DNA from: Cryoendolithus antarcticus
Taxonomy: Eukaryota > Ascomycota > Dothideomycetes > Cladosporiales > Cladosporiaceae
Assembly (NCBI GenBank): GCA_002077065.1
Contig: NAJO01000022.1
Coordinates: 558,001-622,000, forward strand
Reading direction: 5' to 3'
DNA length: 64,000 nt
Shown here: positions 7,139-35,899 of the stretch, one piece after another
Numbering within the stretch: the first letter of the stretch is position 1
Layout of the letters: the number at the start of each line of letters is the position of its first letter
The notes under the pieces: model-generated
Told to the model about the DNA's origin: nothing
What the model saw: the letters and a program-made list of their open reading frames with translations, nothing else
Databases searched by the model: none
Program-made: the position numbers and the translations under genes

Positions 7139-8866
7139 GATGTCGAAGTCTCCGGGAGATCAACACTCGGCACGAGCGAGAAGGTTGCTGTACGCGCCGC
7201 GAGAGGGCGTTGATAAGTCTTGACGCGGTCGTCAGTTCAGGTCGCGCGATGACTCGTCACTGTTGCGGCCCAAGTGAGGCGTATTGGTCGGAAGACCCTA
7301 GAGGCGGCCACGACGCGTGCAGACCGCGTTTATGCTGCTGCGAATCACGAGCAGTCGGATACAGCGCACCGGAGCGTGGCAAACACCTGGTGCCGAAGAG
7401 GCGGTGCAGTATTGGAGATAAGGTTTAGGTTGACAGTGATGGTACGCAAAATTCCTCGATGAGGCGTACCAGTCAGAGAGCAGCCGAAGTAGCGGGACCT
7501 AAGCGGAACGTGTGTTAGCGATGATGCGCATGTTGAGTATAGAAAGTAATTGGGCGCTGATGTAGGCGGTGGCAGGGGAGGCAGCTCTAAGTCTGCGCGA
7601 ACAGCAGAGCGGCGCCAATGGATGTGCGAGATGTGCACGAGACGAGTCGGCTGCCAGCGCATCAACCGCGCGCTTGCTGCTTGCACCGCCACATGCTCGC
7701 AATGCGGTGACGAACTCGACTCAAATCGTTAGGCGAAATTGATGAGGCTGGTCTGGCCGTGATGCATGACTTCTGTGCGTGATGATGACGGTCTGCGTGC
7801 GCGCTCGGGATCCCATCACAGCGGTCCGATACGAGCAGTTACCCGCTCACAGCATGCGTAGCCTGTGTGCCGAGTGCGCCATATTGCTTTCGTAAAAGCA
7901 GACACGTGAGAGGCACATTGCGCAGCTTACCTGAGCTCGTCCGATGTCCGTACACCGATAGTGATGACCTGCGTCTGCACTGGTCAGCGCTGCTCATTAC
8001 CGTGTGGTTCCATTGCCGTTCAGGTACACTTCGCGCGGCGACGTCATATTCGCGACAAGGCGACAGCGACAGGCTCGCAATGGTCCCAGCAATTCACCGC
8101 GAGGCTGACTCTCGCAGCAGTGGATGGTCACGGGAGGGGACGGTGATGTGCGTACCTGGCAGCTTACTCGTCGCTCGTCGCGTGCGACTGAGACACGCGT
8201 GGGTGTGCGCGCGGGCGTGTGTTTGTCGTGTAGTGCCGTGAAAACTGGCGGCGGGAACAGCCCGATAGGATGATGGATCTTGGAGACAGAGGCGCCAAAT
8301 CACAAGTCAGGGAAGGAAGTGGACGAGGAAGTGGCCAATTATGAGAAGGAGCGCTTCAGATTTGCCCAGTTTCGAGGAGGCGCGGGCCGAAGGATGCTTG
8401 GCGTTTTACAGCCTTATGGCCTAAAGTCAAGATCAGGCACATTTACTTCCATATACTTCCAGAAAGCGGAGGAGGATGAACGTGAAGTCGAGACATGGCC
8501 GCCGAACCATGTTGTCACTAGAGCAGCTTAGATGGAATTCAACACTGTATGTTGATCGCACAGGATCCGCTCTGCCGTGCGACAGTAACGTCGGAAGAGC
8601 CTCAAACGTGTCGATCGCGCTTTCCTTCCAAGATGCGCACACCGACGACCACGCTTGCGTTCACTTGATGTGCCCTCAAACGTTGCCAGGCTACAACTGA
8701 GCAGACGGCGCTTCCATCCAGGACAAGACCTGCCTACCGATTCTGTCCATGCGCAGCCTTGTCGCAGTGAACCTCCGCCGGACACGGCCGGGCCGCTCGA
8801 GTTCGTAGTTCCGATCCTGTACAACCATCTGACGCACGCTACTGCCTCACGTGGCCAATACGCCCT

Positions 8867-16169: not shown

Positions 16170-19100
16170 CTATGTCCCACCACTGATACCGATATCCTCC
16201 TTCAGCAAAGGCCTAGCCAGCTGCAAGTAGCCTTCGACGTACGTATACGGCGCTCTCTCCTTGCGAATCTTCGTATCCTCTTCCCCAACATCCATAGCAT
16301 TGAACCTCGTGATCCGATCAGCCTTTGCATCCTTCCCCGGCAAATCATAAGGCTGTAGCCACTGCCACATGCCCTTTCTACCACTGATGGGCAGACGTAT
16401 GGGCGCTGCGGCTGTCTTGCCGGTAGTGCTGACAGCACTGGGATCTGGAGGACCCTTGGAGGTGTTCCAGGTGTCAGCCGAGAGAGGCTTATCAACGTAC
16501 AAGGGAACATCGCCTGAGAGGAGATGCGGCCCGAGACGAAAGAATGCTGTCATGCGAGAGAAAGCCTGCTGGATCGTCCACGGCTGCAGGCGGAGGGATT
16601 TGATCGGTAGACTTGGAGAGAAGGCGTGAACCGGCGTGTAGGGGTCGATGATGGCTGTTATCACAGTATACTTATCCGTTCGTGTCCTGATGATGGACGA
16701 TGTTAAGGCTGGATCGTTGAAGTAAGGCGACAGAGGGAAGAGTTGATTGGCTGTGAGATTGACGAATCGTTTCGTGGCGTCTTTGGCGGTCGAAGGGAAG
16801 TAAGTGAATAATTTGTCCCAATGCGTCATGTTGCTGGAAGGATTATCGGTCATGCAATATCCGACCATCCCATCAAATGGCCTGTCCTTGTCTCCAATCT
16901 TGATGGGAAACTTGTAGGACAGTAGGTCATCTTGGTCGTTCGGGGGCTTGTTGCCGAGAGTGTTCTGATACTTCAACGGAGGTCCTTGCAGCTCAAGTGA
17001 CCATCCGATGTTGACGAGTGCAAGTGGCTTGCCAACGATAGAGTTGGCAAAAGCAGCGTAGTCGCTCGGAGGGTAAGGCATATTCTTGATGGCGCCATTA
17101 ATCATGTCGAAGAGGGCTTGCAGGTACTTTGCGGGCGTTTCGTCCTTCACTGGCGTTCCATCATCATTGGTCGGGACGTAGGTTGTGACCCTTCCGATGA
17201 ACTCATCAAGCTGACGGTTGCCGTTGTCTTGAGCCTTGCTGGGAGGATCAAATGGTAGCCATTTACTGGATCCTACAGTGCCGGTCGGTCCACCCACTCT
17301 GACTTCGCGATAGAAGGTCCCGTCGCTGCAGAAGAATTGAAGACCTTGGTCTTGGTAGTTCAAGACCAACCACCCAAATACCGGACTTTCGTGGGTGTCA
17401 TCGTTAGTCTCATGCCAGTAGGGCGCCTTATTGTCCAGATTGGCGTTGAGGAAAGACGCATTGATACGTGCGTTCTGGTTGATGGAAGGTGTGAGCTGTA
17501 TAAAGCGAGTAACGGGCCACTTGTGCTTGTCGCCGACATCGTTCTTGTCTTCGTCGTAGACGGTGTTCAGCTTCTCCGTCTTCATCCATGGATCCGGGCT
17601 GAGGAAATCACTGATGCATGGGTAGAGAGTTGAAGGTAAGGGAGGCAAGGGCCGCTTATCGTTGACATCACGTGGCCTTGGCGTTGGCTTGGGCTCGATG
17701 ACACAAACGGCCTGACCAAACTTGTCGATCAAATTCAGCTTCGTGAAGAACATCTGACCGTGTGTCGCTGGCTTGAAAGGTACACCAGGGTAGTTCTTAC
17801 TGTCGAAAGACAGCAGATTGGCGTATGGCGTGAGTGCGCTACGTTGAACATCAGTTTCAGCCGCCATCAGTCAACTGCTGCATCAATTCTCACCTCTCCG
17901 GTCCGATGAGGTCCACCATCGATGGCTGTCCCTTATCGACATCTGCGTCGATAGCCTTGCACTTGTCTTTTGCTGCCTTCATTGAAGTGAGTGACTGGCC
18001 CTGAGTACGATAATTAGGCTTGACATGGCTGCCCTCGTAACGTGTCAAGAGGTGCTCGGTCAATCCACTCAGTGGCGCTGAGATGAACTGCAGCTTGCGA
18101 ATATTCGCCAAGACGTCGTCGATCTCCTTCTGAGTCAGAGGCAACACACTGGGGTCCAACGTAGCTTGAGCAGCTGATGGATCTGGAGCAGGGGTCGGCT
18201 TGTTCGGGTCTGGGGTCACTGGCTCAGGCTTTGGCATTCCACTAGATATGACTTGTTTGACAACTGCTTCGAGTGAGAACGACGGCTGTGGAGTCAGTAT
18301 GACACGCCCACTGATCGTTCGCACGTCCTTCTGGTCTGCCGCGCTAAGCTGGCTGTTCAGTCGGTACCGCACTTGCGACTGCTTATGCCCGACTGGACTC
18401 GGGCTCACACCTACTGACCACTTGTGTCGGTCGATATGGTAGTACTGTGCCTCCCACTCGATGAACAGCGGCTGAAAGGGGTTCTTGCCACCCCAAGGCC
18501 GATGGGCTCGATCGCTGGTCACAATCAAACTCGGACTGCTCACACGATCCAAGAACTCCTCAAACAGCTTCCGTGCAGGAGTCCTGAGATCACTGTCACT
18601 GAACAACGGCTTCCCTGCCTGGCTGAAGAATGCGTCGGCTCGCGAAGTCGTGCGACTCTTGAGCTGGCCTTGCTGTGCAAGTCGACACACAGCCTTGTCG
18701 AGGAAGTCGTCTGGCCATCCACTTTTCACGCCAGCTATGCAGAGCGTAGGATCCTTGCGGATGAAGAAAGGATCTCTGGCGGACCGCTTGAACGTCGAAG
18801 CCTTACTCAGTCTAGTAATCTGCTGGCTAAGATCCCCGACCCGGGCATTGGCATCGATGATCAGCTTCTTCGATTTCCTAACTTTTGTGGTGTAATCCGC
18901 CTGAAGGCCAGTGTCTGTCCAACCTGGGTCACTGACAAACTTCCACCAATGGGAGAACATATCCCAACGCAGCGACTGTAGCTTTGATGCCAGAGAGTCA
19001 TATTCTGACTGTAGGCCGTTCAGTGACGCCAGTTGCCCTTGCTCTGTTGGAGACGGCAGGGCGACTTTGCTATTTGTCGACTGACCAGCCTTGCCAGCAA

Positions 19101-20655
19101 AGTGCCATTCGAATCCGCCAGCATCCTTGGCATAATTTGTTGTGTACAGCAGGTCTTGGGCTTTCACGCGCTCGTTGTAGCTATCGTCTGAAGCGTATAG
19201 TAGCGAGGCAAGGCTAAGAACGTCTTCGGCAATGGCGCTTGTTCCTGAACCGAATATGGATTCTTCGTCATCGGAGTGGTCCTTGTTGTGTGCTTCTAGG
19301 AACGTCAGGATGCCATCGAGTGCCGTAGTACCCATCGAGAGCGGCTCCATCTTGACATCTGGCGTGAACTTGACAGCGACTTCGTCGGCAGCACTCGGCG
19401 TCTTCTGCTGCGGACTCTTACGATAATTGACGCCATAGATGCTGCCGTGTACGAGGACGTTGTATATGCCATGGGCCTTGAGTATGTCTTTGACCGCCTG
19501 ATCAGAGTCGCCGTCTGGCATTTGAAGCAACAAAGTTGCAAGCCTGGAGCTCAAGGTGGCCACAGCACCAGGATTGCTGTCAAAAAGTGGCGAGTCCTTT
19601 CGATCTGTATGCCAGCCGAGGACGAAGTAATCTGCATCAGCGGTGTCCAGGTGATCTGAAGTGTTTGGCATCTGGAAGCTGTCTATCATACTGAATACAT
19701 TGCTGTTGTGCATCACGTAATCTGTGATCCGTCAGCCATCATTCAATGCCATCGACGCTGATCAGTCCTCTCCATATCTGAAGTCACGGAGTAGCGACAG
19801 GGTGGTGTAGAAGCCAAGTTGAAACCAGGCAAGTGCGCAGTGAACGTGCAGCGTCGCTGGTACATAGTCTGACATCGCATACATTTACTACAGAAACGCT
19901 GGGATCTTCCGACAAGTCGGTGATTAGCGAGATCAGTGAGACCTACCTGGAAACAATGGATTTGACGAGTTCATCACAGTCAACCCTGGCGTGGGTGCGG
20001 CGTCTTCAGGTCGTAACGGATATCCAGGCTGCTGATTCACTTTTCCAGGAGTCCAGTCCAGATGTGCTTCACGTCTCCCCAGAAACACCTCGATCTGTTG
20101 AGCGAATATGGTAGGATCGTTGCTGCCCGAAGCAGCCACGAAGGGCACGCAGTCCACTTCCAGATCAGTCTTGTCGTCTGTGATGTCGTCGATCTTTCGG
20201 ACCCTATCACTTTCGATAATTCAGGACTGATACTCCTGTTGCCCGTCGATTTTCGGGTGGCGGGTGTCCATATTGAGATGACGGATGACCAGCCAGCGGT
20301 TCGGTACATTACGGAACACTGGCTGCGAGGCATCTTGAGTGCCATCTGGCTGCTTGGCCTTGGCTGTTGCTGTCCTGTACAGCCTGGGAAGAGACCAGTG
20401 GAGGTATACGCCAAGTCGATTCTGTCTAAGAGAAAATGGGTTGGTAGAAGGATCTGCCAGACGTGGGTTCTCCCCGATTGGAGTGGACAGGTGTAAGTCG
20501 ACATGGTCCAAGACATCGTGCTGGATCAAGTTGTTTTCGAGCTGCAAGCCCATATAGTTGGGCTGCGTGATCGGTGCTAGGTAGGAGGGTCCATCGCAAG
20601 ACTTGTCGTTCAGTACGAATGCTGTCAGGTCGGCCGGGATACAGACTATGTCCAT
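16170..20655 (-). CDS. Cluster gene A: giant uncharacterised protein, interrupted by an in-frame TGA
   Basis: Three exons (20655-19947, 19721-17894, 17838-16170) make 1401 codons plus a stop. Introns are 225 and 55 nt, with phases that fit. No signal peptide or membrane segment is visible, so the product is probably cytosolic. The N-terminal 150 residues contain GVYLHWSLPRLYR and FRNVPNRWLVIRHL. Further on come LTVMNSSNPLFP and, across intron 1, NVFSMIDSF and YFVLGWHTD. From memory these resemble conserved stretches (LHWALPD, VPNRWLV, NVFSF) of large bacterial proteins of unknown function. A Pro-rich linker (PKPEPVTPDPNKPTPAPDP) lies in the middle. Codon 145 (20221-20223) is TGA, at a place where Trp would fit; see findings. 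It could be a pseudogene, a read-through gene or carry a very short intron. Function unknown. Confidence 0.7.
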
Positions 20656-21457
20656 GATCGTACGTAGTAGCCCGGAGTCTCGAGGGTCCAACACAGCGCT
20701 GAAGCCAACGCTGATGCTTCTTCTTCGTCGTTCCCCATACTTGCCATAGTCACCTCTGGCTGGCTCACATCAGAGGACAGAAGTCGTGTACAGAACCGTT
20801 GCATCGTGAATCCTGAGCAGCTCCATACGGCGGCGTGGCTGACCATTGTATCGAATATGGCTTAGTTATTGGCGAGCTGCATGAGCTGTGCATAAGGGGA
20901 GGCCGGCGTTGCATGGAAACGAGCAAGCCACGTCCGTTGTCCAGACTTGGCTGACAGCGAAAGCTTGTGCTCTAGTGCACCACTAATGCACTCCGCACGT
21001 GTTAGGTACCTTAAGTACATGTACTCAACAACAACTGTCGCATTATCAAGGGTTATACTCGCGGAGCGGCGGTGCCAAATTCGGTTAACTAAGCCGAATT
21101 CCCAAGTCTCCCTGATTTCGCCTCACTCTCACCAAAGTCGGAAGAAGTTCTGTGCTAACATCCTGCACACCACGAGTATCTACCTCGCCTTTGCCGCCAG
21201 GGATAATTTCAATGCAAAATGAGTGGTGCGTAGCGACATGTGCCTCTCACTGATAGTTCGATCGTCCGTCGAGTGGTGCAATTGAGCATGAAGGCGCTTT
21301 GGCGACGCGTATATTGCCACCGATAGTGTCCTCAGACTCACGACAGAGCGGAGGTAGCGAATGCATAGAAGTGTGAATGAGTCGTGAGATCTGAAAGTCT
21401 GTTCATGGTCGCTCAACGACGAATCGCATTCACCAGCGCCTGTCGCTGTTGTCGCTC
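20656..21457. other. Spacer between gene B 3' end and gene A start
   Basis: About 800 bp that must carry the promoter of gene A. It is visibly richer in A and T around 20990-21060. No ORF with support is seen. Confidence 0.4.
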
Positions 21458-24400
21458 TCACCTCCCAGGATCGCCCGGATCGACCTTCCAAAGCTCCTTG
21501 ATTCCCTTGCCACCTCCGGGTACCGAAACGAAGGCTTTCATATCATCGGTGTAGTACTTCTCCTCCCATCGTACCTTCGTCCTGAAACCCGGTTGCTTGC
21601 CCTTCCCATGCACATTGACCGTCGTGGACCCAATCCCAGCAGCGATGGGCACCTCTGCGAGTCTGAAGCTCAGGTCTCTCGTCCTCTCATCGCTCATAAT
21701 GATGGTCGGCCTCGGCTTTGCACTTCTGGGCACGACGCGGACCTGAATATGCGTAGTGGTGCGATTGATGTACACGACGAAGCGCTGATTGGAAAGCATG
21801 CGGGCTCGAGGGTCGTTGTAGTTTGCATCGACGAGGGCTTCAACGTCGGTCACGCCAGTGTGTGGGAGGTTGACGACCACTTCTGCCAGATTCTGATCGT
21901 TTCCTTTGCTTGACTTGCGTATGACAAAAATGAGATCGAAGAGGTAGTCGTTCTTAATAGGTATGTACCCGTTCGGATCGAATGCGTCACCATCCCACTT
22001 GGGAGGCTTGCCCTTGTAGTCGGGGAAGATGTCAAGGGTGAACTGCAGAATTTGTCAATGCCCACGTCCATCGTACAAAGTGGCATGCACACGCACCCAT
22101 GACTGCTTGTTGCTGTTGATGATAGGTGAGATGTCCGCTGGTTTCCCAGTCACTGTCACATTTGTCGAAGCCACAGCGCGAGCAGGAGGGTCGAATGGCG
22201 CTTGTATCCGTGCATTGGTCTTAGGGTCACCCTGAGGAACGCCGTCAGGCTCCTTATCGCCTATACCATCAGTAGCAGAAGTGTCCTCAGTCTCGACTAG
22301 GTCGGCCGTCCAAGGTCTCGACTTAGCACACCACAGCTGTCGAGTATCTGTCTCACCAAGCTTGCTTATCGAAGCCGACGGCTTGAGCTTGAAGTAGTAT
22401 GCCTTGTCATTGAGTTCCATGGCCAGCTCTGCAGAGTTGGGAACAAAGTCCAGATATGCTTCGTCATTACCGGTGGCGGACCCGAAAATGAGCATCTCGT
22501 TGATAGCCTTGGCTAATGGTGTTACTCTGACCATACGAGAGTCAACGTCATACCATGCCGCAGCTTCGGTAGCGCTTGGCGACGGGGACAATGTTGGCCA
22601 GTCTCCTGTAGCCGGTGGCTTGCGAGTGAATAGCTTGGTCAAGTTGAACTCAGGCAGACCCGCGGCAGTGAGGTCATATCCTAGACTGAATCGCTGCTGG
22701 TGTGGCGGCTGTGCGAATGTGATATTGTCCAGTTCCTCCACTTGACGGTCGAGCAAACAAAGCAATGTGATATCGTCGAGCTTCGTGTATCTGCAGTATG
22801 GAGCCCGAGGGTCGACCTTATTTGGGTCGTCGCCCGTCCAGGTGACCGTTATGCGCATGTCAGGCATGACCTGCACTATCTGAGACCGGAATATGAAACC
22901 ATTGAAGGGCACTTGCATGTGCGCCCCACCAATATCTGCTTTTAGGTACTCATTGAACACGCCTTTGATATAGTCACGGACTAAGTCGTCGTCTCGGTCG
23001 AGATGATTAGCTACAGACAATGCTCCATCGATGAGGCAGTCCATCCAGTTTCTATCAATGTGGAAGAAGCGAAGCGACTCGTTCGGAAGGAAGGAAGGAT
23101 CCGGAATAAGAAAGTGAGCCGGTATGTCGGCAAGAGACAGCTTGTCCGCGAGCCATGTACTGATCAGTGGCCAGTCGGAATTATTTGGCTTCGCAAGGGA
23201 GAACTCAGTCCAGATCGCTTCACCAGCGCTGGTCTGCTTTGCGATCTCGTCCTTCATGGCGAGTGCAATCTTTGGACGTATTGCAGGATTGTCTATCGCG
23301 TGCGGTGCCAGAGTCTTCGCTGTAGGCTGCACAATTCTGCGTGGCTCCGGAGTATTCGTGCCCTTGGCTAGGCTCTTCAGCGTTTTCACACTGTCGGTCA
23401 GCCCAGATATCATGGTATGAGTTGGCAGGACACCATTATCGTCACTGTGTACCTTGCTGACCGCCCAATTGTACACGAGCGATCGGAAACGCATCAAAGC
23501 GGCGTTGAAGGCAGTGTCAGCGATTGCCAGGGCTTTACCAAGTTGCCATGCAGAGGAATAACTGAGATCCATGAGGCCAGTGGCTGGATCGAGGATCTGA
23601 TACTCTTTGGAGGTGTTGCTTCCGGCGCACCAGTCGTCACTCGGTGGCCACCGGACCCGCTGTGGTACGAGAGGGCCTCGACTGAAAGCCGCAGTCTCCT
23701 CGCCAGTCTCGGTCCGCCACCTGGCAATCGAGTAGCCTGCATCGAGTCGTTTGTGCAAAGCACCAGCAGTCTTCGCCTGCTTCGTGAGAACAGCGGGTGT
23801 GCCAGACGTGGCCGTCGACGCAGTGTCGAGACCTTTCAGCAGACTTTGTGGAGGCTTAAGCATCTGCATACTCTTCGTCATGGCTCTCATGTCATCGACG
23901 AAATTGACGGGGTTGGGAGGCAGGGCTGTATATGTCCACGAGAATAGACTGACCATGGCAATTCGTTCGTTCGCCACTGTTGCTACCTTCGCACTTTTCG
24001 GATCAGCAGCCAATGCAGCAGCAACGGCACCGTTGTCCGTTTTGACCGCATCATGAACACGTTGTAGGGTAGAGTCGACGTGCTCAATGGAGACAAGATG
24101 ACATACTTGAGTAGTTGGCACAGTGAGGTCGAGCCTTGCCGTCCGGCCGGACACAACAATGCTGTAATTACCGACCTGCTCAATGCCAGCATCTGGAAAG
24201 CCATCTGTATTGACCTGTCGACTGTCAGCAGCGGTTCCCAAACACATGACTCTCAGCGCTCTGGTTGCGCTGAACATACCGCACGCATGTGAGCAAGGTA
24301 TTTGTTGCCTTCAACATTCGACTGCATAGTCCCATCAGCGGCGGTCTGCGTGAACAGTTTGAGGAAGGTCGCCTTCGTCGGAAAGATGGCTGTCATCGCC

Positions 24401-25224
24401 TCGTTGGAAGCCTTCAATTCATCTAGACCCTTGGTGTCGGTAGCAAAACCAGCGTCGTAGTTAACACGAGATCCGAGAGCGAGATGCATGTACTCCTGCA
24501 CCTGCATAGCGAATGCACCGCTGAGTGGCTGCTTGTCGAGCTTGAGGTCGATCAAGGGAGCGTCTTGTATCAGCTTCGGCTTGAAGTCCACGGGAAGAAT
24601 AAGCTCCGCCGGGTCGAACACCATGACTGCCAGCTGAAGCGATGGTCAGTATCATGGAACAAATCAGTGCTCAGCGAGTGTACTGACCCATGGCACTGCA
24701 CTCCGGAACGTGTTAGTCGTCGGATCAGAAGGCTTGATTGGCTTTCTGTTTGCGTCTAGATCTGGATCGCATAAGCCAGGCACGATGATACCGGCAGCCC
24801 TTTCCCAGGGAAAGTGCGGATCGTTCAGTACGATATGTGGCAAGATTCTCGCTTCGTCCTGGTGACCGTCCGGTGGGTAGTAGCTATTGACCATGGATCT
24901 CTCGATTGCGAATTGGGGCGCCACGACTTCGAACTCCTGAGGCGCTGGAATGAAGACATTCGGTGATGCTTCTCGTCTGTTCTGCTTCGTGAGCTTTACT
25001 CTTTTCCACCCTTTATCGTGGTCGTTGGGTGGGTCCTTGGATTCGTAGCTGTCCGATTCGATTACTTGCTCAACATTGATACTGTAATCGCCTGCGAGCA
25101 GGCCGGGACGATAGTATGAGTACAGCTGCATCTGACCGGGGTCGAGTTTGGGGGGCTCAAATGGCGTCCCTGCACTGGCCGCCAGGAATCTTGCCATATG
25201 GCGAAGGGGAATGTCGCGAGCCAT
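21458..25224 (-). CDS. Cluster gene B: large uncharacterised protein
   Basis: Four exons (25224-24688, 24633-24280, 24214-22097, 22042-21458) give 1197 aa. All intron phases agree, and introns are 54, 65 and 54 nt. No signal peptide or membrane helix is seen. The N-terminal region has GQMQLYSYYRPGLLAGDYSI, then PPDGHQDEARILPHIVLND and FPWERAAGIIVPG. The first junction joins PW to LAVMVFDPAEL, and NKYLAHMRA joins VNTDGFPD. From memory this series (YYRPGL.AGDY, LPH..LN, LPWER, PWLALLVF) resembles a bacterial protein family of unknown function. An apparent stop at 22055 lies inside the third intron, whose donor is GTGCGT. The final codons GGG AGG TGA contain a donor-like AG/GTGAGA, so a further small exon is possible. 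Start chosen at the first ATG of the frame. Confidence 0.75.
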
Positions 25225-26115
25225 GGCGTAGACCTGTGAAGAGGGTGTTCTGTCAATCTCCGAGATATGGTATCCAGGACCGTGAAGGCAGGGAACAGCC
25301 AACGAGAGCAGTAATGACGAGGACCGCCTCGTGGAAAGGCAAGCCCAATGTTAGCAGACTACCGATCAACAATGGATCATCGACCATGCCCTGGTGAGAT
25401 CATTGTTTTTGGTTGACAGTACACGACGAACACCTACGGTTGAGGTTCGATGTCCCCTGGGTGCATATTCAGACAATGAAAATAGTCCGCTCCCGTGGCA
25501 CCCCAAAAGCGTGAGGGCGGCGCCGTTGTTGGCCAGCATACATAACAATGCTGTACATAGACCTACCGTCCATCTCAAAGGGGCATTGCAGAACATCTGT
25601 CGCGTGGCGTTCCACTACATCGGTCGAGGGTCAGCTTTCCGAACAGTGGCGCGCGACCAAGCGCGTCGTTGCAACACCGCTGACACCCGGCGGAGGTCAC
25701 AGCTCATGTCAGTCAGCGCCATCCTTTGCAACCAATGTGCTGAGCGGTAGCCCCATCAGCGGTCTGGATGTGTCGACGGAGAGCTGCAGATGAAGTGAGA
25801 CAAGGAGGCTGGCGGAGATGCATGTGTGACAACGCGGAGACTTTTGTGGCTGGCGGATCCCCTGTACCACGCGAAGCTACAACATGAACTGGGAATAGTC
25901 TCGGATGCTGCGACCGCGGCGATTCCGGCAAACATGGCGCTCAGGATTGGCAGGCATACGCGATGAGTGCTAATGGCTCTTGAGTTCGGACTTCAACAAC
26001 AGGCGCGAACACAGCGTGTGAAGATCCTTGAACACCTCCTCGACCTTCAAGTTACTTGTCTATGCCGCTGGGCGTCTAAGTCTCATTCGTACGTTGAATC
26101 GGGCATCCTCTCACA
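25225..26115. promoter_or_regulatory. Divergent promoter region of gene B and the four-helix membrane protein
   Basis: About 890 bp lie between the two start codons. An acceptor-like site (CTTCACAG) just upstream of gene B's ATG could end a leader intron. No ORF with support is seen. Confidence 0.4.
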
Positions 26116-27079
26116 ATGGCGAAGATCACACGTCTGGCAGCTATCCTGACACCACTCGCGCTCGCGACAGTCGCAATAGCCTTCGCGATACAAGCTGCAC
26201 TTGATCGGGACTGGGCTTCAAGGAACTTCTACACAGATGACCAAGCTCAATGGAGTCCAGCGACGATCAACTCGACCGAGTACCGTTCACCTTTCCAGAT
26301 CTGTGGCTACAGACGAGACAATACTAGCTTGAGTCTCGACTCTCGCGATAACACTTACACATACGTCTGCCATCGATTCGGTTCGTCTGGCAGCAACAAG
26401 ACAAGCTGCGAATCGCTCAATTACACTCTGACACAGTCTGACGCTCGCTATGGCGATGAGCGTCTGTGTCAGCAGATCCACTGGGCTGGTAACGTGAGTT
26501 GTCGTGGAGCTGGAACTGATAATGAAGGTAGCTAATGGCATCTTCAAGCTCGTCATCGCCAGCACGTCTTTCATCGGCATAGGCTTCTTCTTTACATTCT
26601 TCCTTGCATTTCTCTCCATGATCATGGTCTTCATCCCAAACGCAGCAGAGCAAGACTCGCCTCGGGAATCCGAAGCCCACGCGGAAGCCTCGAAGCATGC
26701 CACGGCACACTCGCATCAGTCCCAGGATCAGCATATTCGCAAACGCCCTCACGAACGCTTTCTGCTCCCTGTAGCACCATGGTTTAACGTGCTTCTGATC
26801 TTCTGCTTCGTCTTCGGCGGAGTACTCTACATCTTCGCGCAGTTTTATGGCGTGCTAGCATTTGTGCAGTCAGCTCCCGACAATGGCGCGTTCGCATCAT
26901 TCGGCAATAACAACAACGGAGATACTGTGGTTGGGTTGAACCGCGAGCATGCTCCGTGGGTGCAGGGTAAGGCTCTGAGTGTGTACGCTTCCGTGGCATG
27001 GTTGAGCGCTGGACTGGCGGCAATGGCAGCTGCGTTGGTCTGGAGGCTGCCGAGAATTTCCGGGAGGAATGTGTTGTGA
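26116..27079 (+). CDS. Four-helix membrane protein (SUR7/claudin-like layout), unassigned
   Basis: Two exons (26116-26488 and 26532-27079, 43 nt intron with a CTGAT branch site) give about 306 aa. An alternative 34-nt intron would also keep the frame. The first helix is at about residues 6-27. A loop of about 95 residues follows, with several Asn-glycosylation sites and four Cys. Helices two to four are STSFIGIGFFFTFFLAFLS, FNVLLIFCFVFGGVLYIF and YASVAWLSAGLAAMAAALVW. A His-rich hydrophilic loop (HATAHSHQSQDQH) sits between helices two and three. The layout (helix, large outside loop, three helices) is that of SUR7/PalI or claudin-like fungal proteins, but no signature confirms it. It sits between cluster genes B and C, with the opposite orientation. 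Confidence 0.7.
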
Positions 27080-27538
27080 CAACATGGTAGCTTAGTGTAG
27101 ATAGCTTCTCAATTGATTTGAATATATCAGCTGCCCGTCGCGGTTGCATATACGACTTACACGCAATAAGTGGTACTATGTGACTGTCTTGAAGGTTCAC
27201 TAATCTGGGCGACCTCATCCCGCGGTCAATAAACTTGTTAAGCCTCAGCATATGCGGCACTTAGGGTACGCCCAGTACGAACGAGCTTACTACGCACAGC
27301 AGCATGGAGAGCACTATGCGTGATGTGAAGTGTAGGCTAAGCTATGCACACTGCCTTAGTATCGTACTGTATATCTCACCTCCTTGCATACGACTGCGTA
27401 GAGCAAGTCGCTCGCTGTCTCGTTCATGTTATGACCCTCTACCGATTGTCATGGTCCACTCTCGTGCCTTAGTAACCTGTGTTGTGGAGGTCTTCTTTGC
27501 ACTGAAGCGTGTCTTGTCGTGTTTCGTCAACAAACAGC
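27080..27538. other. Spacer between two converging 3' ends
   Basis: About 460 bp between the membrane-protein gene and gene C, which converge here. Nothing recognised. Confidence 0.4.
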
Positions 27539-29311
27539 TCAATGCCAGCCGGCATCCAAATTGAGTGCCACATCCGGCTGGTTCCCCAATGCAGAGACAG
27601 CAGCAGACGCGGCATCCCATTGTTCCGGTGCAAGAGCCATCACTAGGGGCAGGTACGATTTGACAAGCATGTAGGTTGCGCTCGACGGCGAGAATCCGAC
27701 ATTCAAGGTGCTCGATGCATAGCGGCTTTCAAATGCGAGTCGTGGTGGAGAAGCAGGAACACCGGACGTTGGAGGAACTGCAGTGCGGACATCACTGCTC
27801 CAGCTGACGTAGAACGGCGCACCCTCGCAGAAGCCGAAGCTATGTGCTAGGTCGTAGCCGGTGTTGTCGTTGACATTGAGTGCCCTCCGCCACAGTGCTG
27901 CAAAGTTTGCTGGAGGGCCGTTTGAAAAGATGTTTTTCCTGCCGGTGGCGTGAGGGTAGGCCTCCTGCCCAGGCCACGCTAATTGCGGCCTCGTGATTCG
28001 TAGGCTTCCTTGCGTTGTGAGATTGAACATGTTCCTCACGTGGACTTGCATCAGTTGCTCGGCGCGTGCTGCTACAACGGCGGTGGAAAGATCCATAAGA
28101 GTTCTTCCTGCAGCGCCAGAGGCGTCCTGAGCATCGATGGCGCGAGCGAGCGCAGCTGGAGATGTCTTGGGCAGCTGTGGGTAGGTATTCTTCGGGGTCA
28201 TGCCCATCGAGGTTGTAGGTCTGAGAGATCCCACAGCCAGTAAGTATGTCGTTAGGCCGATTATCTGGCTCTCTGCCGCTGCAGACAGGGCGGCGTCCTT
28301 TTCCTCCGTAACAAGCTGAGCAGCATACTTTCTTGCGACCTGCCAGAGCGCCGCGTACTGCATGCTGCGATATACCTCTGAAACGCCCACCTTGGATATG
28401 GTGTTTACCGGTGGATCAAGTCGCGGCTGACCACTGTCAAACCTGTAGGCCCAGGTATGCCACCACAAGCGAGTGTAGGAGTCGACATTAGATCCCAGCC
28501 AGCCCAAGTCGACTTGGTAATTGACCTGTCATTGATCAGCAGGCGCATCTGAGACGATGATGGCTTCGCGAAGCTTTGTACCTGCACGTGGCAAAGATCT
28601 TGATCCTCATTTCGTGCGATAATAAACAGCGGATCCCATCTGACTGGCTTGAATCGAGGATCTGAGCCGTCGGCCAAGCTAGTGACCTTGTCGCTCAATT
28701 TGAGTTTGAACAGATCTAGAGTGTTCACTACCCCAGGAGGCAGCCTTACCTCGTCCACCTTTGCGTTATACTCGACCACAAAGTCCGCAAGCGGCCGAAG
28801 CATAGTCGGAGATCTCTCGGGTGACGTGTCCACGAAACGGAGTGTTGCAGCGCGAAACGCCCGTGTACAGAGATGCAACTGAATCCAGAACCCATAGTCG
28901 GCGATGGGTTGAGCAGACGTGTTCGCCTGCTTCTGTTAGCCATTCGTCGTGATTGACTTGACTGCGCTGGACTGCTGTCCCTACCTCGAGAATACAGCAG
29001 TTGACGGCGGGAAGCAATGTTCCATCAGGGAGATAGACGTTCGTCCTACCCAGTGCGTCGGGTACACAATGCATACCGAATCGTCCTTCCCAGGTGACAT
29101 TGTCCTCTGTGCCATAGCCGCGTTGATCGACTGGCACCATGATCGGGGCATCCACGGATCTGTTTTGCGCTACGTTGAATGATCGGACTGGTATGTCGGC
29201 TCTGCCTGCTGCAGTCTCGGGGAAGAAAGTCGCATCATCGTGTCGTCTCCAGATCACTTTTAGGGCGTGAAATTCGACCTCTAACCCGAGACGAGGGCCT
29301 GGGATAGCCAT
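27539..29311 (-). CDS. Cluster gene C: uncharacterised 554-aa protein
   Basis: Three exons (29311-28985, 28932-28582, 28525-27539) with introns of 52 and 56 nt; phases agree and no internal stop occurs. The start ATG opens MAIPGPRLGLEVEFHALKV. There is no signal peptide or membrane helix. The N-terminal half looks beta-rich (VYLPDGTLLPAVNCCILE, then YGFWIQLHLCTRAFRAATL). The C-terminal half is more helical (YRSMQYAALWQVARKYAAQL) and ends NLDAGWH. I recognise no family. It is transcribed divergently from gene D over a 622 bp interval, which suggests a shared promoter and a joint role, but that is inference. Confidence 0.75.
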
Positions 29312-29933
29312 GATGGTCTGGGATATGAGTGTACATAAGGGAGACTAGCAACCGAGTTTCGCAAGTCGTCAACCAGGCGCTGTAGGCTCGCAACGTTGCT
29401 CATAGGCTCTGCATCATCACGTGTGATCTCGAGCAATGAGCACGTCCTAGTCTGGCGATGGCAGTACGCATTGGTCGTGCCCTACGGTTGGCCGGGGTTT
29501 CGTAGCAGTGCGGTCCCCCAACCTCATTCGGGCACTGTCAAGCGCATGCAAGCCGTGGCCCATGGAAGATCCAGCTGCAGCTGAAGTCGTTCCACACATG
29601 TCCGCGCCAGCCAGAAGATAGTCTAGATCGATAAGACTGAGCTGTCGTCGGGAAGCTCCTGTTCACGCAAGCCACGGGAGAGCCACCAGGGAGAGGCCGT
29701 GCGTTGTGGTGCGACATGGCTTGCACCTTGCCAGGCAAAAGTCGATGCACGGGATGTGGAACTCTGCTCAGCACCATCTTGTTCAACCCAGACATTGTCT
29801 TGTCACGTGAGTGATAGCCATTGCCCGTGATGGAACGGCATGTCCTCGACGATGTCGAGCTTCAGTGTCATTTCATGTCGCTTGCATTCGCCGCTTCGCA
29901 TACGACGGCAACAATTGCGACGGGGTCGCGGCA
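29312..29933. promoter_or_regulatory. Shared divergent promoter of cluster genes C and D
   Basis: The 622 bp between the two ATGs hold both promoters. One inverted CCAAT box (ATTGG) occurs near 29469. No TATA box stands out. The frame of gene D is open upstream to 29811, but its first ATG is at 29934. Confidence 0.5.
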
Positions 29934-32900
29934 ATGTCGTCGGCTGTACTGACGGACGATCACAAGCTGACGGCGGGTTGGAAGACCTTTCTCAAGCAGG
30001 CGAAGGGAGTATCGTCCGCCTCCGTCGACACCGCGTTGAAATACGAAGCTGCAGTAGAGACGCCAGCGGCACCTGAAGGATTTCTGTACGAGCCTGATCT
30101 ACCTATCAAGGCAGTTTACAATTCGCGTCAGAACATCACCACATTTCAAGATGCCTCGATCAAAGTGGGAGACGATGCAGACATTCTTTTACTATCCTAC
30201 GAGAGTGTTTCGGGCACAATCACCTTGGACAATGTGCTATTCGGCTTCGGTGTCCTCAAAGCGCCCGGCGGCAACACAGGGGAGACTGTCATCGACAAGA
30301 TCGTCACCGCTGTAGGACTGGGTCGTGCTTTGGTGGTAGATCAGAGTCCTTCCAATCGCAATGCCACCTGGTTGATCCCCGCCAAGGCTCCGGTCAAAGA
30401 TCTCGATAATATGAAAGATCCAATGGTCACCCTACAGACTGTGACTACCTTGACTTTCAAGCTCAACGGACCCGCTATCACGGGATTCATACAGCAGTTT
30501 GCGTCTGCACTGGACGAGGAGTTTGGTACGTCGCTTGGCAAAGTTGACGGTAGCGACTTGGAGGCTTTCGCGAGGTTATTCTCATTCACTGTGTCCACCA
30601 CGACAACCGGCACATTGCTCAACGACTCGACCTACGACATCACAGTCTCTCCGAAGCTGACGTTCACTGTGCGATTGAAGGGCTTTGTTGTAAACCTCAT
30701 CTACGAGCGCAATGGCGTTTCACTCAGTGTGCAAGAGGACACGACGCAGTCAGACGATCTTGTGACGAAGCTCGCGAGGTTGATGACTGGCCCAACGCAA
30801 GACGCCCCCCCGACAAGTTCCTCCTTAGATGCATTGCAGAGAACACAGGCAATCGCCGAAGATGATATACACCTTCGCAATGTAGCCTTTGGCAAAGACT
30901 TCGGTGGCAAAATGTGGTGGCAAGCTCAATTCTATTGTCGATGGGTCATTAGGAATGGAGTTGTTGTCTGGGTTGGCCTTGCGTACGATAGCCGCTCACA
31001 GACTATCGATGGCGGTCTGCTGTTCAGCCGTGACTTTGCTGACGCGGAGATGATGCTGCTACCTTACTTCGACGAAAGCATGCGCCCACCTGATGGCCTG
31101 GTAGACTCTCTGAACCTCTATGACCTATTCGAGGAGACAAAATCACTCCCAGACAACATACCCCATCTCGTGTCACAAGCTTCAGTGCGTTTGATCCGTC
31201 AGACCACGCCAGCGCGTTTCGAGTTGGCCTTCGCCATAGACAGTGCTCCATCGACGACTGTTCAAGACTCCGGGCCGGTGCCATCACCTTTTGATTGGTC
31301 GAGTCTCGTGGTCAATATCACGAAGCAAGGTCCTGAGATTGCGGTCTCGATTGACACTGCGTGCTTCATCAATCCACGACCAGAGGATGTTGCATTGTAC
31401 ACTCCGGCAACCTTGACTGTCAGCATGGACTACAACAGCGCAACCAAGAACTTCGACCTGATTGGCACAGTCGACAGCCTGCACTTCGGTGCCCTCGCCA
31501 ACTACGCCGATCCAAGCTGCGCCTCAGCGTTCAGTGCCATCTTCGGCAAGTTGGTGCTCAGCCAGCTGATGCTTCGCTACACAATCGATAATGTCACTAC
31601 TGATGACGGTAAGTCCAGCAACAAGGCAAGTAGCTTTCTCATGTTGGGTAAGATCAGGCTTGGCTTGCTCGAGCTGGACCTGGTCTACCAGTACACCAGC
31701 GACATCGCCAAGAAAACCGCCACGGAAGTTCAAGTCGCCAAGCACCCAGACGCGATTGGTAAGATCGAACCCATTGCAAAGCCCACTTCTGCCGACAAGA
31801 GTACCGGATGGACCTTCGAAGCGTATCTGGGCGCTGCTGGTACAAAGGCGACGCTAGCGGAGGTGGTAGGTTCTATTGATCAGGCTGCTGCGGATGCGCT
31901 TCCTGGCTTCGTGGGGGATATCGAGATCGCGCCGAGCGGGGTGGGGGACAGCCCTGTGCGCTTGACTTTGTCAAAGACTTCGCCTCCTGCAAAGGTAGAG
32001 GCGTCCAGCAGTAGCAGCTCCACCACCATAGCTGCAGCAGATTCAACGTTACTGCTGACACTGAGGGTCGCTGTTGGGCCAATCGACCTCACTTTCGTCC
32101 AGCTGTGCGAAAATGGGAAAACAACCACCACTACTCAAGTCACCACAACGACACCGCCCATTCCGAAGAGACTCCTGCGAGTAAAGGTCGGCGAGCTTCC
32201 TAAGATTCCTGATGTTCCGATATTGCAAGATCTTACACAACCTTTCCAAGCTTGTCAGTATATGTACGTCGGAGCTGGTGGTGCGCTCACTACGGATGAT
32301 GTCGAAGCCATCAATGCTAAGGTGGGGGATGGAAACGAGGTACTCTACAAACAGTCTAACAAACCTGCCAAGGCTGTCGAGAGTGCCGGCGGCGCATCGG
32401 GCGGAGACGCTGACAAGAAGAACCCTGTGACTGCACTAGCCATTGGACATCATTTCGTTATCGTGCACGAAAATCAGGTCGTGCTGGATCATGTCTTTGG
32501 CAATGCGAAGAGTCAAACTCCGTCCTCGGACGCGGAAGACGGCAAAGATGCCGACAAATCAGGCTCTGATACGAAGGACTCGGGCGCCTCAAAGGACTCG
32601 GACGCTAAGAAAGATGCCAGCGCTACGGAAGACGAGCCCGCGCCCACCAAGGGTGCACTCAAAGCCCAGACGAAGCTCCTCACGCTTGATAGCGTCGCAC
32701 TGCAATTCAAAGATGGTGTACTATGGATCATGCTCGATGCGACGGTAGCCCTTGGCCCCGTAGCACTGACCCTACTTGGCTTCGGCATCGGACTCCCACT
32801 CGGAGATGCGAAGTTGAAGCCTACAATAGACAATCTCGGCACGTTGATTAGTCACATGCAATTCCAGATCCATGGTCTTGGTGTCTCGTTCGAAAAGCCG

Positions 32901-35899
32901 CCGCTGATGATCGCCGGAGTCTTCGAGCATGAGATCATGAAACAGCTGGTTGGCAAGCCGCCGGTAGAGCAGACGATCGACGCATACAGAGGTGGTATTG
33001 GCATCAGCTTTCCGCCTTACACGTTTGTGGCTGTCGGACAGTACGCGAAGGCCAAGTTCAGTGATGGAAATGAGTACAAATCGTTGTTCGTGTTCGCCAA
33101 GCTTGATGGCCCGCTAATTACACTTGAGTTCGGGTAAGTTGTCTCCGCACACGCCACCGGATGCCAATAGAAGTCCGCCACTGACCTCCTCGCAGTAAGT
33201 CGAGCAAAATCTGTTCCATTAGCTTCTCCGAGCTAGTAATTCACGGCCAGCGCTGCTATCGATGCGATCGCAGCAGTGACCAGGCGCTGTCGGCCCGGTG
33301 AGAGGCAAGCCATACGGGCGCTGAAAGACTGCCCGTTTGCTTCTCGCCGAGACTGGAGCATTGCGTTCCCCATTGCGGTCGCTTAGACACATGCTCAAGA
33401 CGTCCATCAGCTTATCGGAGAAGCGAAGACACTCATGATAGGACAAGATGGAATTAGACTGACCAAATGACATAGCAACGATCAGCGGCGTTCGCATCGG
33501 CTTCGGCTACAACAGCATGGTCCGCTCACCCTCGATGGAGGAACTTACCAAATTCCCTCTCATCGACGATGGTAGTCTGGGGGGTGCTGGCAACAATCCA
33601 ATCAAGCTGCTACAAACCCTGTGCAACAGCGACAACCCATGGGTAGTTCCGAAGCAGGATTCATATTGGTTCGCCGTCGGAATGACGATTACTGCTTTCG
33701 ACATCCTGAAGATCACGGCTGCAGCGTTGCTGGCTTTCCGAGACTCGGGCATCATTGTGAGCCTATACGCGGACGCTATTGCGCAGATGCCGCCAGCCGC
33801 GACGAGCACGTCCGAAATGGTGAGAGCCCTCGCGTCCACTTGACTCAGAATATGAGGATTGACGGTGTGGCATACAGATCCTCTATGTCGAGATCAGTCT
33901 CGTTGCCGAGATGAACTTTGTCGACTGCTACTTCCGATGCGAAGCTTCACTCGCGCCCACTTCATTCCTCCTTGTGCCTCAATGTCAGCTTTATGGCGGC
34001 TTTGCTCTGTGTTATTGGTTTGGAAACAATGCTCATAGCGGCGATTGGGTATTCAGCGTTGGGGGCTATCATCGTTCCTTTCAAAGGCGAGGAATTTCCA
34101 TGGGCAGTGCAAGCGGGCGAAGCGCTAACATGTTGCAGGCCCTCGCACTACCCGAACCCGAAGCGTCTGGGCATATCGTTCACCGTCGGCGACATGGTGC
34201 ACATACAAGGCGAGGGGTACTTCGCCATCACGCCCAAGTGTGCCATGGGTGGCGCAATGATCCACGTTTCGCTCTCTGTGGGCATTGTCAGCGCTTATCT
34301 CGATGCTTCCTTCGATGCCATGATCAACTTCCATCCCCTGCACTATATCGCAGAGCTTCATGTTGCTATCGGGGTCAGCTGCGACATTGACATCCTGTTC
34401 ATCCATGTCCACATCTCGGTGTCGATCGGCGCAGATCTTCATATTGAAGGACCGGAATTTGGCGGCGTTGCACAGTACGTATCCCCGCTCCCGCCACTCC
34501 TCTCCCTTCAATCTGAAGGTCTCTCGTGCTACTATCGACCACGCCACGACTGTCTATGATGTGTGGAGTGTCATCGAGAAGCGATATTGATCGAATGACG
34601 GAAAGCCTTCGGGGCTATCTCTCCACGGCGTTTCTATTACAAGTGCACCGCCGTGGTGCAGTCCATGCTTCCATGAAGGACCTCCAGATACTTGTGAAAG
34701 TGGACATACTATTGACAGTCGGCTGACAATTTCCCAGCGTCGATTTCTGGGTCTTTGGCTTCGATGTCTACTTCGGCGAACAACCAAGGCTTCCAGATCC
34801 TCTCAATCTTAGCGACTTCTACGACATGGTCCACAAAGCAGGGCCAACATCCGGCCGGCCTCCCTCCGCAGGTCCCGAGAGTGCAGGCCTCGATCAGCAG
34901 ATTAAACTCACCATGGAGCAGGGGGCATTCGCTATGCCCTGCCAAGACACCGCGACTGCCACCGCGCAGCCAGATAGCTCAGGCGCGGGCATGAAGTGGT
35001 TCGTCAAAGGCGGCAGCTTTGCCTTCAGAATTGCTTCAGACTTCGCTCTGAGTACAGCCAAGATCATCAACAAAGATGGAGGATATGATGAAATTGCGAA
35101 ACCTGCGAACCCGAACCACGACAATCCGGCTCCCATATATAGTACGCCCATGCATCTCAGCGCGCCGCATCCCGAGCGTTCGCCGCCTGATCCCGGTCAT
35201 CCTGAGATAACCTCCACTCTAACGATCACCATCCGTTCTGCAGAAGGCAAACTTCTACCTGCCACAGGCTGGAAGCCGACCTACATTATCAAGGACGTTC
35301 CCTCCGCCCTCTGGCGCGACTACGACTCAAGCCGCGACCCGATGAGTAAAGGTGGTGGACGGGAGCTCCTCAGTCCGGCGAATGGCACAGTCAAACAGAT
35401 CATGGCTGTCAGTCTCGTAGCGCCCGATCCCATCCTAGCAAAGAGCATGATTCCAGCTTTCAACGCAACGGACGCACAGAAGAGCGAAGTCCTTGATGAT
35501 CATGGCAAGAGCTGGACGATACCAACTCCAGGCGCCGACCAAACGAAAGACATGCTACCCGTAGCGCTCACACCCCCAAGCGACCCGCCCGATCTGCCAG
35601 GCGAGTGGAAGACCATGCAGACTACATGGACGGCGGCCTCAGCCAACGGGCTGGACCTTGCAACAAGTATGGCTGCGCTTTGCGCAACGAAGTTAGGCTG
35701 GGATGCACCGCTACCTGGGCAGCTTACTGGGCCGAAGATCACGGATGCGGGTGTGAAGCCGGCTTGGATGTTGACCACGGACTTGCCGAAGAGAATGGTG
35801 GTTGGGACGAAGAAGGCTGACGATTCGAAGCTGAGGGATGTGATGGATGGGTTGGAGAACTTCTATTTAGCTTTGCCGAGGATTGCTACGGCTGCCTGA
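29934..35899 (+). CDS. Cluster gene D: giant DUF6603-domain protein
   Basis: Five exons (29934-33133, 33486-33819, 33878-34086, 34139-34474, 34738-35899) give about 1746 aa. No signal peptide. The first 850 residues are beta-rich repeats of unknown fold. Residues about 860-905 are a Ser/Asp/Lys linker (SSDAEDGKDADKSGSD). From about 930 to 1500 the protein matches DUF6603 as I know it: LLGFGIGLPLGD, GLGVSFEKPPLMIAGVFE, YKSLFVFAKLDGPLITLEF, GVRIGFGYNS, NFVDCYFRCEASLAP, GFALCYWFGN, HYPNPKRLGISFTVGD and FGGVAHVDFWVFGFDVYFG. Intron 3 (34087-34138) is a GC-AG intron. Introns 1 (352 nt) and 4 (263 nt) are unusually long; intron 1 is phase-consistent only with the acceptor at 33485. DUF6603 occurs in bacteria and fungi with no known role. 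Confidence 0.85.

What the first reader, a model, noticed from the sequence alone, without database searches (positions are those of the whole stretch)
16170..35899. A four-gene cluster of giant uncharacterised proteins around a DUF6603 protein
Seen: four large genes (A about 1400, B 1197, C 554, D about 1746 residues) sit together; A, B and C point one way and D diverges from C. None has a signal peptide. D carries the DUF6603 pattern. A and B contain short conserved-looking phrases (VYLHWSLP, VPNRWLV; YYRPGL.AGDY, LPH, PWER) that I remember from large bacterial proteins of unknown function. Inference: the genes came together by horizontal transfer as one unit and their products act as one assembly, since none resembles a fungal enzyme and all are large and beta-rich. 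I know of no described fungal system with this composition. What it does cannot be read from sequence alone.
Basis: partly seen in the sequence, partly recalled or inferred. Interest (0 to 1): 0.9.

Follow-up and report, generated by a model that had tools for sequence, protein, structure and literature searches.

The report
Bacterial giant-protein operon adopted by fungi
A cluster of giant uncharacterised genes in an Antarctic rock fungus contains three genes that also sit side by side in many kinds of bacteria, where they are often followed by a phage-tail-like adhesin, so fungi seem to have taken over most of an undescribed bacterial machine.

Summary
In detail: A, B, C (minus strand) and the divergent DUF6603 gene D occupy 16170-35899. 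Two corrections: A carries an in-frame stop (20221-20223), and a small plus-strand gene lies between B and C. A, B and D are homologues of three genes that lie together on one strand in bacteria of many phyla. In draws not chosen by motif, all 4 A-carrying actinobacteria (of 396, centre included) carry DUF6603; A, B and D lie together in 8 of 8 new proteobacterial loci but only 3 of 11 actinobacterial ones. A, B and D distances mirror each other (r 0.91-0.93, 44 loci). Fungal A and fungal B each form one clade, both nearest the same Gram-positive operons. No bacterial relative of C was found. In bacteria a gene with one shared domain and a variable rest (beta-propeller, laminin-G/tail-collar, fibre-like) follows A in 26 of 48 A-bearing loci. 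A bacterial D core is predicted as a long beta-meander; a bacterial A is predicted confidently (pLDDT 90.6) without a clear PDB match. Best reading: an undescribed signal-less, membrane-directed assembly with exchangeable adhesins, acquired by fungi as a unit. The mechanism is inferred.

The parts
16170..20655 (-). Gene A, about 1,400 aa, introns about 19946-19722 and 17893-17839; homologue of the bacterial operon protein A; interrupted by one in-frame stop
   Evidence: Models; 157 database matches; bacterial matches; dN/dS 0.11 over 1,322 codons against the C59 copy
20221..20223 (-). In-frame TGA in gene A (codon 145); relatives and the second copy are open here
21458..25224 (-). Gene B, 1,196 aa, introns 24683-24627, 24279-24215, 22096-22043; homologue of the bacterial operon protein B
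   Evidence: Model; 130 database matches; bacterial matches; dN/dS 0.087
26098..27076 (+). Small gene with a hydrophobic start between B and C, kept at the second cluster; role and membership unknown
   Evidence: Open frames; 89.7% DNA identity over 1,140 bases at C59
27539..29311 (-). Gene C, 554 aa, introns 28984-28933 and 28581-28526; rare family, no bacterial relative found
   Evidence: Models; 5 database matches; two copies at C59
29934..35899 (+). Gene D, DUF6603 protein, first exon to 33133 then at least four more exons (boundaries approximate), divergent from C
   Evidence: PF20248 matches; open frames; dN/dS 0.12-0.13

Best explanation
A, B and D are the fungal form of an undescribed bacterial operon of three giant proteins, often accompanied by an adhesin gene called E here. 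SHOWN by sequence: homology, linkage, co-variation, one clade each of fungal A and fungal B, purifying selection, and an exchangeable E gene after A in many bacteria. PREDICTED by modelling bacterial relatives: D's core is a long antiparallel beta-meander, amphipathic in the bacterial proteins tested; A is one large compact protein unlike solved structures. INFERRED: A and B form a soluble hub; E docks on it by its shared domain and chooses the target surface; D's sheet binds or inserts into lipid. As no component has an obvious signal peptide, the particle is made in the cytoplasm and leaves by lysis or another non-classical route, as tail-like particles and toxin complexes do (recalled). Fungi took over D, B and A together from a Gram-positive lineage and lost or never received E; in this fungus C sits in the cluster, perhaps as a new partner. 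The fungal version would then be a cytoplasmic or lysis-released membrane-acting complex.
For: Operon: 43 of 43 searched genomes of motif-selected loci carry DUF6603; A, B and D together in 35 of 40 chosen regions. Draws not chosen by motif: 8 of 8 new proteobacterial loci, 3 of 11 actinobacterial loci, A only where DUF6603 is, 4 of 4, 3 of 3 plasmids inspected of 9 with a match. Co-variation: r 0.91-0.93 over 44 loci, 0 of 2000 permutations as high. Single transfer. Selection. E. D fold; alternation z 3.6-6.1 in four bacterial D. A fold. No obvious signal peptides.
Against: No contact, secretion or membrane action was tested. D's model rests on 10 sequences and is poor outside its core (mean pLDDT 61.5); its matches to ApoB and barrels have low TM-scores or rmsd near 14. 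The window's own D exon 1 does not alternate more than shuffles (z 1.1). 22 of 48 A-bearing loci show no E in the stretch read, and fungi have none. 7 of 11 new actinobacterial DUF6603 loci stand without A or B, so DUF6603 also acts elsewhere. Fungal D's place in its tree is unresolved. Some A proteins have a hydrophobic start. The E domain profile was iterated five times and could have drifted. The window's A copy has a stop.
Confidence: 0.42

Rival explanations
1. Lipid carrier or store: D wraps or channels lipid as the ApoB beta-belt or bridge-like lipid-transfer proteins do, A and B are its scaffold, and E tethers the particle to a surface in bacteria.
For: Best Foldseek match of the D model is ApoB100 (E 6.3e-5); no signal peptide; works equally in Gram-positives, Gram-negatives and fungi; very long D variants of about 3,300-3,650 residues in open frame.
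Against: TM-scores against ApoB are low (0.15 and 0.30, rmsd 22.5) and barrels match as well; variable adhesins with tail-collar parts fit targeting better than storage.
Confidence: 0.23
2. Surface or matrix scaffold: the complex is displayed or shed as an adhesive layer and E binds sugars or neighbours; it is not membrane-active.
For: E carries laminin-G, beta-propeller and Fib_succ parts; sporadic presence in bacteria.
Against: No signal peptide or anchor was seen in the proteins checked; D's predicted meander is not explained.
Confidence: 0.2
3. Enzyme complex: A is a large enzyme (conserved H, W, D and R residues) and B and D are accessory parts.
For: Strongly conserved polar and aromatic residues in A across bacteria and fungi.
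Against: No enzyme family by sequence and no enzyme fold by structure above chance level; the first motif histidine of bacteria is a tyrosine in fungi.
Confidence: 0.1
4. Chance or loose neighbourhood: four unrelated fungal genes that happen to lie together.
For: C has no bacterial partner and few relatives.
Confidence: 0.03

Closest known systems
DUF6603 (Pfam PF20248)
   Same: D is a member by its curated score
   Different: The family has no assigned function; its linkage to A, B and E is not in the name, and some actinobacterial members stand alone
Phage tail fibre and tail collar proteins (PHROG 1800, 523, 8469; Pfam Collar)
   Same: Some E proteins end in such domains (L113 phrog_1800 E 7e-80; L121 Collar 47.9 bits)
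   Different: A, B and D of L104 match no PHROG, and a D protein has no match in 50,697 phage records
Toxin complexes (Tc) and contractile injection particles
   Same: Large, signal-less proteins of one operon with exchangeable binding parts; working analogy only, partly recalled
   Different: A and B match no Pfam family; no sheath or tube gene was recognised in the neighbours scanned, but not every neighbour was scanned
ApoB100 beta-belt and outer-membrane barrels
   Same: D's core is predicted as a long antiparallel meander
   Different: Low TM-score or high rmsd, no sequence match; D lacks an obvious signal peptide and occurs in Gram-positives and fungi

Membership tests
DUF6603 (PF20248) | Score above the curated 27-bit cut-off | tested here: met
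   Window D: stretches of 132, 90, 81 and 74 bits; exon 1 alone 80 bits
D-B-A operon described here | Homologues of A and B on the same contig as a DUF6603 gene | tested here: met
   Window and C59 cluster; bacteria
D-B-A operon described here | E gene with the shared domain after A | tested here: not met
   No match better than E 0.48 in the window frames or the fungal A, B and C proteins held; present in 26 of 48 bacterial loci with A
Tc toxin complex | Pfam families of Tc subunits in A, B or D (family names recalled) | tested here: not met
   Zero families for A and B pieces and a bacterial B; only DUF6603 above cut-off for D
Contractile injection system | Sheath and tube genes in the locus | tested here: inconclusive
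   None recognised in the neighbours scanned, but neighbours were sampled; one plasmid has baseplate-V genes about 9 kb upstream of D
Outer-membrane beta-barrel | Signal peptide and barrel fold | tested here: inconclusive
ApoB / large lipid-transfer proteins | Shared fold and lipid cargo | tested here: inconclusive
   Foldseek E 6.3e-5 but TM 0.15/0.30; lipid cannot be tested here
Known anti-phage defence systems | Match to a PADLOC-DB model | tested here: not met
   No family for 10 pieces of A-D at E up to 1

The most novel reading that the evidence does not exclude
DUF6603-B-A-E is an undescribed class of membrane-directed particle: a hub of new fold (A), a giant lipid-acting beta-sheet (D) and swappable adhesins (E). 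It occurs sporadically across bacterial phyla, sometimes on plasmids, and entered fungi as a working three-gene unit that has since been kept under selection.
Probability: 0.4. Interest if true: 0.92.

Novelty: categorically new. Interest (0 to 1): 0.8.

Why it matters
Transfer of a multi-gene bacterial complex into fungi as a unit is unusual, and here it stayed linked in distant fungi and was duplicated in one. The operon joins a family of unknown function (DUF6603) to two unnamed giant families and to phage-tail-like adhesins, so it turns proteins now called hypothetical in many genomes into one testable system. The predicted A protein has no clear match among solved structures and is a good target for structure work. 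Searches for DUF6603 and PF20248 found no paper in the library, which holds open-licence papers only.

Tried and rejected
Ordinary neighbours: rejected for A, B and D by the bacterial operon, the second cluster and the mirror-tree result. Phage origin: D has no match in 50,697 phage records; a pattern scan of viral contigs with A gave 4 stretches and no relative. Sequence profiles against solved structures: no match for A, one chance-level match each for B and C. The first scan of bacterial genomes with the fungal A alignment matched 12 stretches but no relative; a motif recalled from memory (V-H-L-H-W-A-L-P) then worked, so the 56 loci are motif-selected and the draws are the fairer test. The fungal A profile, run over 43 whole genomes, rang in 29 and the fungal B profile in 42; the bacterial profiles used later are more sensitive but were built from some of the same loci. 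C in bacteria: none, but one search had no positive control. Fungal D placement: unresolved; an AU test did not reject grouping it with seven Gram-positive and other rows (p 0.169). No whole-protein PDB match for A; single domains were not searched apart.

The protein searches scored only the 7,993-7,995 candidates sharing most words, so their totals are lower bounds. The 24-base 'intron' of the public A model was rejected as too short.
Full report
THE OBSERVATION. By hand models A runs on the minus strand from 20655 to 16170, B from 25224 to 21458 (1,196 aa, three introns), C from 29311 to 27539 (554 aa), and D on the plus strand from 29934 to 35899. The DUF6603 match of D is strong and spread over several exons. 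No curated Pfam, NCBIfam or PADLOC family was found above its cut-off for the pieces of A, B and C tested. Homologue searches returned the same proteins from Cryoendolithus antarcticus (A P0001 and C P0241, both with a longest contig of 788,809 bases), so the window is from that fungus or a very near relative.

TWO CORRECTIONS. Gene A has an in-frame TGA at 20223-20221. The public model P0001 is otherwise the same protein but leaves out a 24-base stretch there. The related protein P0003 (Zymoseptoria brevis) and the second copy in this genome are open at this place. Also, a small gene lies on the plus strand between B and C (26098-27076); it is kept at the second cluster (89.7% over 1,140 bases).

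A SECOND CLUSTER. The same genome (46.97 Mb, 149 contigs) holds a second set on contig C59 in the order D, C, C', B, A, the mirror of the window's order. Between the two sets dN/dS is 0.11 for A (1,322 codons), 0.087 for B (1,196), 0.14 for C (301) and 0.12-0.13 for D exon 1 and last exon, so all four families have been under purifying selection. dS differs widely (A 0.29, B 0.80, D 1.1-1.3, C 1.75), so the two sets do not share one simple history.

BACTERIA. The first scan with fungal patterns found no relative. A motif recalled from memory gave 56 loci of at most 8 kb. The fungal A profile matched 48 of these 56 at E of 1e-3 or better, and the fungal B profile 31 of 56. I gave 44 of the 56 loci to a genome search; 43 were held and 43 of 43 carry DUF6603. 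Over the same 43 whole genomes the fungal A profile rang in 29 and the fungal B profile in 42. In 40 regions that I chose around these matches, A, B and D lie together in 35, B and D in 4, and D alone in 1. In the 35 the three genes run on one strand; by my reading of that listing the order is D-B-A in 22, A-D-B in 9 and B-A-D in 4, that is, always the same cycle. Record titles include Acidobacteria, Actinobacteria, Chloroflexi, Bacteroidetes, Cyanobacteria, Firmicutes, Gemmatimonas, KSB1, Plesiocystis and Proteobacteria.

DRAWS NOT CHOSEN BY MOTIF. DUF6603 was found in 12 of 396 actinobacterial genomes and 9 of 398 proteobacterial genomes, each count including the centre genome. Of 11 new actinobacterial loci, 3 have D-B-A, 1 has D with the start of B at a contig end, and 7 have a more distant DUF6603 gene without A or B, one of these on a 3.4-kb contig. 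Of 8 new proteobacterial loci, 8 have A, B and D. From A's side, A was found in 4 of the same-sized draw of 396 actinobacteria, and all 4 carry DUF6603. Leaving the centre out, 3 of 3 among 11 carriers in 395 would happen by chance about 1.6 times in 100,000 (hand arithmetic). Plasmids: 9 of 72,556 records match D; the three inspected, from Paenibacillus polymyxa and two Streptomyces, all have D-B-A.

ONE UNIT. Over 44 bacterial loci the distance matrices of A, B and D correlate at 0.91-0.93, with 0 of 2000 permutations as high. Part of this may reflect the species tree. In maximum-likelihood trees 27 fungal A (of 72 rows) and 28 fungal B (of 80 rows) each fall on one side of a branch (SH-aLRT 99 and 100; the same). 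In both trees the fungi share a side of the next supported branch with the same six Gram-positive rows: L130 (Nonomuraea), L157, L144 and L145 (Streptomyces plasmids), L143 (Paenibacillus plasmid) and L167; support is 99 in A and 93 in B, where L108 (Bacteroidetes) joins them. The trees are unrooted quick searches. The simplest reading is one transfer of the unit from a Gram-positive lineage into an ancestor of these fungi, with later loss or further transfer. Fungal D falls in the same part of its tree without firm support.

THE FOURTH BACTERIAL GENE. After A, on the same strand, often lies a gene here called E. Iterated profile searches from five seeds found one shared domain in E genes. Among 62 regions, 48 hold A; in 26 of these 48 an E gene follows A, and none precedes it; 22 show none in the stretch read. 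The rest of E varies: beta-propeller (L104; weaker in L107), laminin-G with phage tail collar (L113, L121; phrog_1800 at E 7e-80 in L113), laminin-G (L123), Fib_succ domain (L138), or repeats that to my eye look like a fibre shaft (L130, L144; no PHROG match). In some A proteins a piece of the same domain ends the protein. The window and the fungal proteins held show no such domain (best E 0.48).

MECHANISM. Shown: homology, linkage, co-variation, selection, and the exchangeable partner E. Inferred: that A and B form a hub, that E docks and selects a surface, that D acts on lipid, and that the particle leaves the cell without a signal peptide. In two annotated plasmid operons the D, B and E proteins and one of two A proteins have no hydrophobic start; the other A has one. 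I put 0.42 on this whole reading, and about 0.85 on the narrower claim that A, B and D are one functional unit that fungi received together.

LITERATURE. Searches for DUF6603 and PF20248 found no paper, mixed searches found none, and the species name found one taxonomy paper (PMC10739867, search listing only). The library holds open-licence papers only, so absence from print is not proved.

Noticed in passing
window 20221-20223: In-frame stop in A, bridged in the public gene model by a 24-base gap; a second, open copy exists on contig C59.
   Followed up: partly
window 26098-27076: Small plus-strand gene with a hydrophobic start between B and C, kept at about 90% DNA identity at the second cluster.
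   Followed up: partly
G000 C59:398855-420810 against the window: The two clusters differ unevenly: dS about 0.3 for A, 0.8 for B, 1.1-1.3 for D and 1.75 for C, which suggests gene conversion or a mosaic history; C is doubled at C59.
   Followed up: partly
L117, L118, L124, L133, L136, L139, L141, L180-L184: Very long D genes; the open frames that hold DUF6603 reach about 3,250-3,650 residues.
   Followed up: no
L112:11186-16381: One open frame matches both D and B, an apparent fusion; in many proteobacterial and Bacteroidetes loci B is split into two genes.
   Followed up: no
L109, L119, L126 and their clusters (L113, L114, L115, L122, L123, L131, L134): Recurrent 190-810 aa neighbours in two sequence clusters; L109 and L119 have a metallo-beta-lactamase-like start, and L109, L119 and L126 match a PHROG tail family; role unknown.
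   Followed up: partly
L158, L161, L162, L164, L165, L166: Actinobacterial DUF6603 genes of a more distant kind without A or B nearby; a separate use of the family.
   Followed up: no
L143:5454-10449: On the Paenibacillus plasmid, two baseplate-V genes and a DUF4280 gene lie about 9 kb upstream of D; a link to the operon is unproved.
   Followed up: no
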